Source: Spiroplasma sp.
Lineage (GTDB): Bacteria; Bacillota_I; Bacilli_A; Mycoplasmatales; VBWQ01
Length of the DNA: 64,000 nucleotides
Reading direction: 5' to 3'
Assembly: GCA_031119525.1 (NCBI GenBank)
Contig: JAVHXO010000002.1
Coordinates: forward strand, 63,903 to 127,902
Of the stretch, positions 1,911-53,402 are shown piece by piece (position 1 is the stretch's first letter; every line of letters begins with the position of its first letter). A model generated the notes under the pieces. That model was not told where the DNA came from. It did not search any database and saw nothing but the letters and a program-made list of their open reading frames with translations. Position numbers and translations under genes: made by a program.

Positions 1911-3584
1911 TTACAATTTACTAATTCAATCTTCAAATAATTTAATAGAAAATAAATTTTCAATTTCAAAAAATGCTGTTCTCAAACTTGATTTAGTTTT
2001 TTTTCATCCTGCACCATCAGTAACTCAAACAAAAGTGAGATTTTGTTTTTTTAAAGCATCATTACATGTAATATATGAATTCGCAGTTTCGTTCAATTTT
2101 GAACCTGAAGAATTATAAAAGTTACATTCTAAATAATATTCTTTATTGTTTTTAATAAATTTAAAATCAAATTTCTTTTTTTTACCAAGATTTTTTAAAT
2201 ATAAAGAACATTGTGTTTCAAATTCAATATTATTTTTTCTTAAAATTTTAATAATAGTATCTTCCATAATTTTACCAGAACGATTTTTTCTGGCATTACT
2301 ATCTAAACCTATTTCCATTCCATAAAAATATGTTTTAAAATCAAATCTTTCATCACCAATAAATAAATGAATCAAATTAGTGTCTTTTAAAAATTTAATT
2401 ACATCATCTGAATCACTAAATTTTAAATTACTAAAATATTGATTTTCATCATTATTAATAAAAATATTATTTTCTCTAGCAGCTAATAAAATATAAAATT
2501 TTTTATACGAATTTAAATGGTGAAATCAATATTTATGAATTTTTTCTTGTAATTTTTTTTCATCTTTAGAATGTAAAAGATTAAAAACTGAAAGATCTCC
2601 TTTATAATCTGAAATTTTATTATTAATCTTGTTCCAATCAACAAAATTATTTAATTTACTATTTGTTTCAATAAAAGTATTTAAAAATTTAATAAATTTT
2701 AATTCTTTTTTAGTTTCTTCAGTCAACATCTTTTCGTCCTCACTATAAATATTCTCATAATTAAAAATAAAAAGTTCATCAGCTGCATTAATTCTATTTT
2801 TGCCATTACAATTAATAAAGCGATTAGTTTTTTGTGGAATACAAAAATAACTTTTATATAATTCCCTAATAAATGGATGATCATTATTAGTTAATAATCA
2901 ATTTGCTCCCTTTTTTTCTGCTGATTTAAGAAATTTAAAAAGTTTTCTTTGATCTTGCTCAGTAAATTTATTAACATCATATGAATTAAAACCTTTATTT
3001 TTTGAAAAATAATAAGGTGGATCAACAAATAAAAAATCGTCAGGTTCAATATATTTTAATATATTTTTATAATTATGATTAAAAATCTTAATTTCATTAG
3101 TTTTTAAATACTTAGTAATATTATTAATATTATTTGAGTCGTATAAATTTGTTTTATTTTTATTTGCAAAAGGTACATTAAATTCACCTTTTGAATTTAC
3201 TCGATAAATACCATTGAAACCATATTTATTCAAAAAAATTAATCTTGCAGCAATATCATTTTTATTTAATAAATTAATATTTTTTTGTCTTAAATCTTGA
3301 TAAAAACTTTTCAAATCTTGTGAATTATTTCATTTTTCTAAAGTTTTAATTAAATTTTCAGGATTATCTCTAATTACTCTATAAGCAGTAATAAGTTCTT
3401 TATTAATATCATTAATAATTACTTTATTATGAGCAAAATTAAAAAATACTGCTCCACCACCAACAAAAGGTTCAATAAATTTATTAATCTTTTTCGGTTT
3501 TAAAGCATTTATAGTATCAAGAACTTGAGATTTTCCACCCACTCATTTAATAAAGGGTTTCATCTTTATATTATTTTCTTCCAT
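1911..3584 (-). CDS. Fused GATC methylase and DpnII-type restriction endonuclease
   Basis: One open frame of 557 codons joins two proteins that are normally separate. Residues 1-285 are a Dam/DpnM-type adenine-N6 methylase: KPFIKWVGGKSQ at the N-terminus, SAM box FVGGGAVFFN, and catalytic DPPY at 188-191. It ends in FIFNYENIYSE, about where DpnM-type enzymes stop. Residue 286 is a Met at 2729 and begins a DpnII/MboI-type endonuclease of 272 residues, with FVDWNKI near its start, RKNRSGKIMED, catalytic D473 and E486-x-N488 in the PD-(D/E)xK layout, GSKLNETANSY, and late WVTDGAGW. I read each codon from 2900 down to 2727 and found no stop. The Met at 2729 has its own ribosome site (GAGGAC), so fused and free endonuclease could both be made. 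A lost stop codon or an assembly error is the main alternative. Expected target is GATC. Confidence 0.9.
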
Positions 3585-38784: not shown

Positions 38785-38813
38785 TTGGTTTATCTCATAT
38801 TTTTATTTATAAT
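38785..38813 (+). promoter_or_regulatory. Promoter of the DUF3800 gene
   Basis: TTGGTT (38785-38790), exactly 17 bases, TATAAT (38808-38813), about 53 bases ahead of the ATG. Confidence 0.6.
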
Positions 38814-38866: not shown

Positions 38867-39604
38867 ATGAATAATAGTACTATATACATAGTCTTAGATG
38901 AAATTGGTGCTCTACATACAAAAAATGAAAACTATTTTGGCGTTGGCGGATATATTACAAATGATTACAGTCTTGTACAAAGAAAATGCCAAAATATTGA
39001 AAAAAAATTAAAAAAAGATAATGACTATATAAAAAGAATGCCAGAAATAAAGGGATGACGACTAAAACCTGAACATATTACTCAATACATTTCCTTTATT
39101 AACCAAGAAACCTACAAAAACAACATTCTTTTTATTCCAGTACATATTCTTGTAAATAAATTGGAAGTAAAACATTTAACATTAAACGAAAATGAATCTT
39201 ATAATTTTTTTGTTAAATGATTATTAAATTACTTAATAAAATGTAAAATTATAAATAATTGTAATCAAATATTGCTTCTTTTAGATAAAAGAAGCATTAG
39301 CACTAAATTTAAGCATTCTTTGCAAACGCATTTAAATTTATTTTTTTACAATTATGCAATTACTTTTCAAGTTCAATATAAAGATTCTGCTAACAATTCT
39401 TATATTAGACTTGCTGATATTATATGTCATTGCTTATTTAGAATGAATAATTATATTTCAACTCTAAAAACTAATAAAATTTTATTTTTTCTTACTCAAA
39501 ATAAAATAAATTTGAACAAAAATAAAGCAATTTTTCCTTACAAAAAGAAAAAAGAAAAAATTATGCAAAAGATTGATTTAATTTCAAAAAATGATAATAT
39601 GTAA
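38867..39604 (+). CDS. DUF3800 family protein (RNase H-like fold)
   Basis: 245 residues. The N-terminal strand YIVLDEIGALHTKNENYFGVGGYI matches the DUF3800 opening (D-E-S-G then a-v-G-G-y-i). Asp11/Glu12, Asp140 (LLLLDKRS) and Asp184 (YIRLADIICH) fit the acidic triad proposed for this RNase H-like family. The family is common near phage and mobile genes and its function is not known. One UGA Trp. It stands alone on the plus strand between lysS and an ABC exporter, with its own promoter, and a compact structured RNA follows four bases after its stop. Confidence 0.82.
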
Positions 39605-39607
39605 TTG

Positions 39608-39681
39608 TAAGTCCTATCTGCAAGCTGATGACAGTTGGAATCTAACCGTATGTTAAGTACGGAGCCCAGTAGGCTTTTTTT
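39608..39681 (+). ncRNA. Structured RNA at the 3' end of the DUF3800 gene (candidate)
   Basis: About 70 bases, clearly richer in G and C than the surroundings. Visible pairing: closing stem CCTA (39613-39616) with TAGG (39670-39673); hairpin CAA-g-CTG / CAGTTG with ATGA loop (39621-39637); hairpin CCGTA / TACGG with 7-base loop (39646-39662). A run of seven T follows. An alternative AGCC/GGCT hairpin (39663-39675) would use part of the closing stem and end the transcript. Comparative work has described several RNA motif families named after neighbouring DUF3800 genes; this may be one of them or a new relative. Confidence 0.6.
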
Positions 39682-39700
39682 ATATTGAAAACACTAAAAT

Positions 39701-39734
39701 AAAAAAAATCCAAATATCAATTTGGATTTTTTTT
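39701..39734. terminator. Bidirectional terminator between DUF3800/RNA and the ABC exporter
   Basis: A 15-bp stem (AATCCAAAT-type core) flanked by A8 on one side and T8 on the other, so it works in both directions. Confidence 0.88.
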
Positions 39735-39747
39735 CAAAACCACCATT

Positions 39748-53220: not shown

Positions 53221-53283
53221 TATTATTTTTCCCCTTTCGTTTTTTGTTGGCATCTTTTTGATTGATTTTAAAATTTTAGTAAT

Positions 53284-53366
53284 AAAAAACCACTACACAC
53301 AATCCTTAATCTTATGGCTGCTACTTTTCAGTCCTGACCAGGTTCGAATGTAATTGTTGTAATGGC
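53284..53366 (-). ncRNA. ffs: Small SRP RNA (4.5S-like)
   Basis: The RNA core of the signal recognition particle. The minus strand shows the conserved apical part: CCTGGTCAGGAC, then TGAAAAGTAGCAGCCA, the Ffh-binding loop region. The 5' GCCATTAC pairs base for base with 3' GTAGTGGT, closing a rod of about 80 bases, and six T follow at 53284-53289. It lies between serS and tadA, as scr in B. subtilis. Confidence 0.92.
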
Positions 53367-53372
53367 ATTATA

Positions 53373-53402
53373 ATTATAACAATTTTTTATTAAAAAGTTA
53401 AA
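53373..53402 (-). promoter_or_regulatory. Promoter of the SRP RNA gene
   Basis: On the minus strand TTTAAC (53402-53397), 18 bases, TATAAT (53378-53373); transcription would begin at about 53366, exactly the 5' end of the folded RNA. Confidence 0.65.

What the first reader, a model, noticed from the sequence alone, without database searches (positions are those of the whole stretch)
38867..39681. DUF3800 gene with a compact structured RNA at its 3' end
Seen: a lone plus-strand DUF3800 gene with its own promoter, and four bases after the stop a GC-richer 70-base element with a closing stem, two hairpins and a T run. Known: the DUF3800 family has an RNase H-like acidic triad and no settled function, and several RNA motif classes have been described next to DUF3800 genes by comparative genomics. 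Inference: protein and RNA form a two-part system, for example a nuclease with its guide, substrate or inhibitor RNA. The closing stem and an AGCC/GGCT terminator hairpin exclude each other, hinting at a switch.
Basis: partly seen in the sequence, partly recalled or inferred. Interest (0 to 1): 0.82.

Follow-up and report, generated by a model that had tools for sequence, protein, structure and literature searches.

The report
Nuclease gene with dedicated small RNA
A gene for an RNase-H-like enzyme of unknown function is followed by its own small structured RNA gene, and the same gene-RNA pair turns up in dozens of gut and insect-associated bacteria, so the two very probably work together, most likely with the RNA holding the enzyme in check.

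Summary
ORF 38867-39604 (code 4) is a DUF3800 protein with all acidic residues that are invariant among its relatives; its predicted fold is closest to RNase HII. The element behind it (39609-39681) is a real structured RNA. A covariance model built only from gut Bacilli/Clostridia, with no sequence from the window's family, finds it at 48.0 bits (E 7e-12), full length, top hit of the window. Those relatives covary strongly in a three-way junction: closing stem, small hairpin, invariant UAA, second hairpin. A pattern search found at least 116 such RNAs; 69 of the 70 with a DUF3800 gene within 1.5 kb lie directly behind it on the same strand. Nearly all carry their own sigma-70 promoter; the window has a weaker one in place. 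So this is an independent small-RNA gene paired with a nuclease gene: a compact subtype of the DUF3800-I RNAs that Rfam mostly misses (1 of 19 over threshold). It has no variable segment that could be a guide, and the proposed switch is not conserved. A type-III-antitoxin-like inhibitor is the best-supported role (about 0.45), but no function is shown. Two further DUF3800 genes in this genome carry other, apparently undescribed RNAs.

The parts
38785..38813 (+). possible promoter of the DUF3800 gene (TTGGTT - 17 nt - TATAAT)
   Evidence: read from sequence; perfect -10, poor -35, so not listed by the scan
38867..39604 (+). DUF3800 gene, 245 aa, RNase-HII-like nuclease fold; D11, E60, D140, D184 kept; S13 replaced by I
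   Evidence: Pfam E 2.5e-11; alignment A6; AlphaFold pLDDT 86.9; Foldseek RNase HII E 5.9e-5
39573..39600 (+). candidate promoter of the small RNA, inside the gene's 3' end: TTGATT - 16 nt - TAATAT, 8 nt before AAGTCC
   Evidence: same place and spacing to the RNA as the TTGACA-17-TAWWAT promoter of relatives; weak itself (8 of 12) and not listed
39609..39681 (+). compact DUF3800-I-type small RNA, about 66-75 nt, ending in the T run; start inferred near 39607-39609
   Evidence: model R1: 39609-39680, 48.0 bits, E 7.3e-12; Rfam DUF3800-I 19.9 bits
39613..39620 (+). closing stem P1, 5' strand (CCUA-U-CUG), pairs with 39667-39673
   Evidence: covariation
39624..39626 (+). inner stem P1b, 5' strand (GCU), pairs with 39663-39665
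   Evidence: MFE; GUU/AAC in the same-genus relative
39627..39642 (+). hairpin P2 (GAU/AUC, 10-nt loop)
   Evidence: MFE; position as in R1
39643..39645 (+). invariant UAA 5' of P3
   Evidence: present in all 34 RNAs lined up; later sequences were partly selected for it
39646..39662 (+). hairpin P3 (CCGUA-UGUUAAG-UACGG)
   Evidence: 97% cognate pairing against 71% swapped
39667..39681 (+). closing stem P1, 3' strand, plus U run; P1 doubles as terminator stem
39700..39735 (.). separate hairpin (AATCC...GGATT) with T runs, probably the terminator of the converging ABC operon; not part of the system
   Evidence: read from sequence

Best explanation
A two-gene cassette: a DUF3800 protein (RNase-HII-like fold, acidic active site intact) and, directly behind it, a separate small-RNA gene for a compact three-way-junction RNA of about 70 nt. 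Shown by comparison: the RNA is real, conserved in structure, tied to DUF3800 and, in relatives, independently promoted. Inferred: the RNA binds its neighbouring DUF3800 protein through the invariant UAA-P3 part. Inferred with less certainty: binding keeps a potentially harmful nuclease inactive, as an RNA antitoxin does in type III toxin-antitoxin pairs or RCd22 does for AbiF, and the nuclease is freed when the RNA is lost or outrun (phage infection, loss of the cassette).
For: RNA membership by an independent model. Covariation: 64 double-changed cells against 18.3 in shuffles, 94.7% paired against 30-46% when slid; P1 alone 50 against 17.2. Association: 69 of 70 gene-linked RNAs lie directly 3' on the same strand; in the wider DUF3800-I family the RNA sits 5', 3' or convergent, and divergent beside a broken gene, which speaks against a cis-acting leader. 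Own promoter at least 9 of 12 in 66 of 69 gene-linked RNAs. Protein tree and RNA type agree. Nuclease fold and invariant acids. Cassette-like spread: 13 of 20 tested flanking proteins matched Pfam and their families differ from locus to locus, mostly housekeeping; one copy in a viral contig. RNAs outlive genes: 7 of 14 examined genomes have the RNA but no DUF3800 hit, and one RNA keeps its stems beside a wrecked gene. No room for a guide. AbiF/RCd22 shows that such pairs exist (PMC12373285).
Against: No binding, toxicity or nuclease data. Orphan RNAs look slightly eroded (full P1 in 12 of 17 against 44 of 49 gene-linked; promoter 15 of 18 against 66 of 69), so their persistence may be slow decay of a small target. 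A DUF3800 clade at one chromosomal spot has no such RNA nearby, so DUF3800 need not be restrained by one. Classic type III antitoxins are tandem repeats upstream of the toxin; this is a single unit behind it.
Confidence: 0.45

Rival explanations
1. Activating ribonucleoprotein: the RNA is an obligatory cofactor or scaffold that turns DUF3800 into an active, targeted nuclease.
For: Strict pairing with the gene; RNase H fold as in many RNA-directed nucleases; other DUF3800 proteins accompany Cas12a2-type and VI-F CRISPR loci (PMC10910872; PMC12669027); orphan RNAs seem to erode after gene loss.
Against: No variable segment long enough to aim at anything. A DUF3800 clade without the RNA nearby keeps the gene.
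Confidence: 0.27
2. Independent small RNA that happens to travel with DUF3800: it regulates other mRNAs or is processed by DUF3800, without controlling the protein.
For: Own promoter; genomes with the RNA and no DUF3800 hit; DUF3800 could be its processing enzyme.
Against: No cognate pairing with the start region of its own gene (-19.65 against -19.64 kcal/mol swapped); conserved bases lie in stems and the P3 loop, not in an open seed; tight linkage to the gene.
Confidence: 0.15
3. Mobility element: the RNA and an RNase H-fold protein are parts of a mobile unit, the RNA being needed for insertion or maintenance.
For: Scattered insertion among unrelated genes; discrete RNA blocks with no similar flanks; some orphan RNAs beside transposase-like ORFs.
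Against: No terminal repeats or insertion boundary was established here; gene arrangement differs between families.
Confidence: 0.08
4. Plain mRNA tail: terminator with incidental folding, or a cis-acting switch.
For: Folding energy of the single sequence is ordinary; the closing stem does end in a T run; an alternative hairpin can be drawn.
Against: Covariation, sequence conservation far beyond a terminator, own promoters, RNA found on either side and strand of the gene, alternative hairpin not conserved.
Confidence: 0.04

Closest known systems
DUF3800-I RNA (Rfam RF02969)
   Same: next to DUF3800; P1 enclosing P2, UAA and P3; P3 loop; direct full-length but weak match
   Different: compact: no 5' hairpin, no separate terminator hairpin, AAGWCC start and GGC end; 19.9 bits against 44.2; 1 of 19 compact relatives passes Rfam's threshold
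DUF3800 proteins (Pfam PF12686), including the TPR-DUF3800 of Cas12a2 loci (PMC10910872)
   Same: same domain, RNase H fold
   Different: stand-alone 245-aa protein, no TPR, no CRISPR effector beside it
RNase HII (PDB 1eke)
   Same: nearest solved fold (E 5.9e-5, TM about 0.5); DE-x-G motif on the first strand
   Different: sequence profiles not significantly alike; last acid sits at the ADI position; no GRG motif
AbiF / RCd22 (C. difficile) and type III toxin-antitoxin pairs such as ToxIN
   Same: protein plus neighbouring structured RNA that could bind it directly
   Different: unrelated protein and RNA; single RNA unit behind the gene; no toxicity shown

Membership tests
DUF3800 (PF12686) | domain match above Pfam cut-off | tested here: met
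   44.9 bits against 21
DUF3800 (PF12686) | conserved acidic active-site residues | tested here: met
   D11, E60, D140, D184 invariant in 33 sequences including the window; the window alone lacks S13
DUF3800-I RNA (RF02969) | score at or above gathering threshold | tested here: not met
   19.9 against 44.2 bits; not recovered genome-wide with this model
DUF3800-I RNA (RF02969) | P1 / P2 / UAA / P3 core beside a DUF3800 gene | tested here: met
DUF3800-I RNA (RF02969) | 5' hairpin and separate terminator hairpin of the model | tested here: not met
   absent in the window; P1 itself precedes the T run
compact subtype defined here (model R1) | significant full-length match to a model built without the window's family | tested here: met
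   48.0 bits, E 7.3e-12
type III toxin-antitoxin | RNA antitoxin of tandem repeats upstream of the toxin gene | tested here: not met
   single unit, downstream
type III toxin-antitoxin | protein toxic, RNA binds and neutralises it | not testable with these tools
   needs expression and binding assays
RNA-guided nuclease | variable guide segment in the RNA | tested here: not met
   relatives vary in paired positions and loops of a few nt only
RNase HII | fold | tested here: met
   Foldseek E 5.9e-5, probability 1.0
RNase HII | sequence-level homology | tested here: not met
   profile-profile probability 2%, P 0.008

The most novel reading that the evidence does not exclude
A new kind of RNA-restrained nuclease cassette: an RNase-HII-like toxin or phage-defence enzyme kept inactive by a dedicated small RNA with its own promoter, spread across Bacilli, Clostridia and mollicutes and on at least one phage, with several RNA classes each tied to its own DUF3800 subfamily in the same small genome.
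Probability: 0.35. Interest if true: 0.85.

Novelty: new variant of a known kind. Interest (0 to 1): 0.62.

Why it matters
DUF3800 has no settled function, although RNAs have been known beside it for years and related domains sit in rare CRISPR loci. This work defines a common compact RNA subtype that Rfam mostly misses, shows that its relatives are independently promoted small-RNA genes rather than mRNA tails, argues against a guide or a switch, and gives a minimal gene-plus-RNA unit that can be tested in a few experiments.

Tried and rejected
Anticodon-arm mimicry by P3 (5-bp stem, 7-nt loop): loops vary too much. Switch between P1 and AGCC/GGCT: not conserved. Antisense control of the gene's start region: no cognate advantage. 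RNase HII kinship by sequence: not significant. Named relatives by protein search in genome contigs: nothing by single protein, alignment too diverse. Phage and plasmid records with the protein: only a Fusobacterium record in the plasmid collection, unannotated there. PADLOC: no hit. Early MAFFT alignments misplaced P1; solved with 5'-tagged and then near-equal-length sequences. Literature queries gave nothing on DUF3800 function beyond CRISPR association; the 2017 RNA-motif paper is not held.

Full report
What was claimed. A lone DUF3800 gene with a structured RNA at its 3' end, perhaps a two-part system, perhaps a switch.

The gene. ORF 38867-39604, read with code 4, is a 245-aa protein with a Pfam DUF3800 match (E 2.5e-11). 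In an alignment of 33 relatives D11, G14, E60, K62, D140, S174 and D184 are invariant; the window's protein keeps all of these but alone has I instead of S13. The AlphaFold model (pLDDT 86.9) has an RNase H fold whose nearest solved relatives are RNase HII (1eke, E 5.9e-5) and human RNase H2; the best viral match is a phage DUF3800 protein. Sequence profiles do not by themselves prove RNase HII kinship. This fits the published remark that DUF3800 is an RNase H fold with a catalytic rearrangement (PMC10910872). The host genome has two more DUF3800 genes. Its family contains Spiroplasma ixodetis: contig G003:C1 and record NZ_AP026933.1 have the same length of 2,102,039 bases.

The RNA, first pass. 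The single sequence does not fold unusually well, and no Rfam family reaches threshold in the window except the SRP RNA. A permissive search gave a full-length, same-strand, sub-threshold match to DUF3800-I (19.9 bits). Relatives in the genus gave the first comparative hints: a tail-side RNA in G002 with different but paired stems and a DUF3800-I RNA 5' of its gene, and a partly degraded copy at the corresponding place in G001 without a gene.

Wider family. RF02969 occurs in 24 of 395 sampled genomes of the class, and the RNA lies 5' on the same strand, 3' on the same strand or 3' convergent to DUF3800 genes. Lined up by hand, all 34 RNAs share UAA directly 5' of hairpin P3. The stems were picked by eye, but cognate pairing (P1 162 of 162, P3 97 of 100) far exceeds pairing between strands of different sequences (51% and 71%).

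The decisive set. Features outside the pattern are therefore independent evidence. Of these loci, 70 have a DUF3800 ORF within 1.5 kb; in 69 the RNA is 3' on the same strand (63 intact, 6 fragmentary), one is convergent, 19 have none nearby and 27 lie near an end of the stretch. The RNA starts AAGACC 9-99 nt behind the stop in the loci measured. A sigma-70 promoter of at least 9 of 12, mostly TTGACA-17-TAWWAT ending about 8-9 nt before AAGACC, is present in 66 of 69 gene-linked RNAs and 15 of 18 orphans. The window has TTGATT-16-TAATAT at the matching place (39573-39600), weaker but in register. In 32 distinct RNAs the structure has 94.7% standard pairs, 64 double-changed cells against 18.3 in shuffles, and a covariation score of 0.312 against 0.167; sliding the partners destroys it. 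RNAalifold finds nearly the same fold unaided. The covariance model R1 from these sequences, none from the window's family, finds the window element at 39609-39680 with 48.0 bits, E 7.3e-12; the next hit is at E 0.57. R1 also finds the same-genus and same-family copies and several Rfam DUF3800-I members, which links the two. Rfam itself catches 1 of 19 loci of this subtype.

Gene-RNA pairing. In the protein tree, proteins with the compact RNA fall on one side together with a clade that lacks it; proteins with convergent RNAs form a supported clade; proteins with 5' RNAs group (the window's own branch is long and its exact place unsure). Flanking genes differ from locus to locus and are mostly housekeeping. 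A viral contig carries DUF3800 followed by the RNA on the same strand. So the pair behaves as a movable cassette.

Orphans. Among 14 chosen genomes with a DUF3800-I-type RNA, 7 have no DUF3800 hit. L037 keeps intact stems beside a DUF3800 gene full of stops, with some paired changes relative to L027. Yet compact-subtype orphans look slightly eroded compared with gene-linked ones. These facts suit a partner RNA that decays last, or a retained antitoxin; they do not decide between them.

Mechanism. Shown by comparison: a real, structured RNA tied to a nuclease-fold protein, with its own promoter in relatives. Argued against: guide (no variable segment), switch (not conserved), antisense control of its own gene, cis-acting leader (variable placement). 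Inferred: direct binding. Best guess: inhibition, by analogy with AbiF/RCd22 (PMC12373285) and type III pairs; main rival: an activating cofactor. No experiment here separates them.

Novelty. The kind is known: DUF3800-associated RNAs have been described (own knowledge; two such families are named in PMC11701678). The compact, widely distributed subtype with its own promoter is not covered by Rfam 15 thresholds, and two more RNAs in this genome match neither Rfam nor R1.

Noticed in passing
L003 about 2330-2440 (G000:C6), L007 minus strand 3' of its gene, L019 about 3330-3450: Class B RNA 3' of another DUF3800 subfamily in three genomes (GGCCATAGG...TTGGTAAGANCGTANGTYCG): consensus TTGACA-17-TAAGAT or TATTAT promoter, covarying stems, no relevant Rfam or R1 match. 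In G007 the gene is broken.
   Followed up: partly
L002 and L006, minus strand, directly 3' of the DUF3800 genes (G000:C4, G001:C1): Class C RNA (AGTTRCTGG...TTCGAGAGCAGGTAAGCTGCCCAAC plus terminator), conserved in two genomes, no relevant Rfam match. With the window this gives three DUF3800 genes with three different RNAs in one genome of about 0.8 Mb.
   Followed up: partly
L016 3590-3677 (+) and 4587-4645 (-): G002 DUF3800 gene flanked by two related RNAs: one 5' on its own strand and one window-type RNA convergent at its tail, with no gene of the window type found in that genome.
   Followed up: yes
L015 2997-3059 (-): Partly degraded copy of the window RNA in G001 next to the same ABC permease; the DUF3800 gene is gone and cas1, cas2 and an ATPase gene lie 1-3 kb away.
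   Followed up: partly
L074, L075, L076, L080: Window-type RNAs in the sister genus (including Spiroplasma ixodetis SHM), some in several copies, beside broken or absent DUF3800 genes and transposase-like ORFs.
   Followed up: partly
L052-L064: DUF3800 gene in many species of a sister family (mostly one genus) with no adjacent R1 RNA, nested among proteins that have it: DUF3800 can persist without the RNA nearby.
   Followed up: partly
L038 and L040 1501-1620: Two related species share a DUF3800-I RNA although no DUF3800 gene was found in either genome; flanks are conserved too, so selection cannot be judged.
   Followed up: partly
L008, just upstream of its DUF3800 gene: GC-richer, hairpin-rich stretch with a strong terminator-like hairpin; possibly yet another RNA.
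   Followed up: no
window 53277-53373 (-): Bacterial small SRP RNA (Rfam, 65 bits).
   Followed up: no
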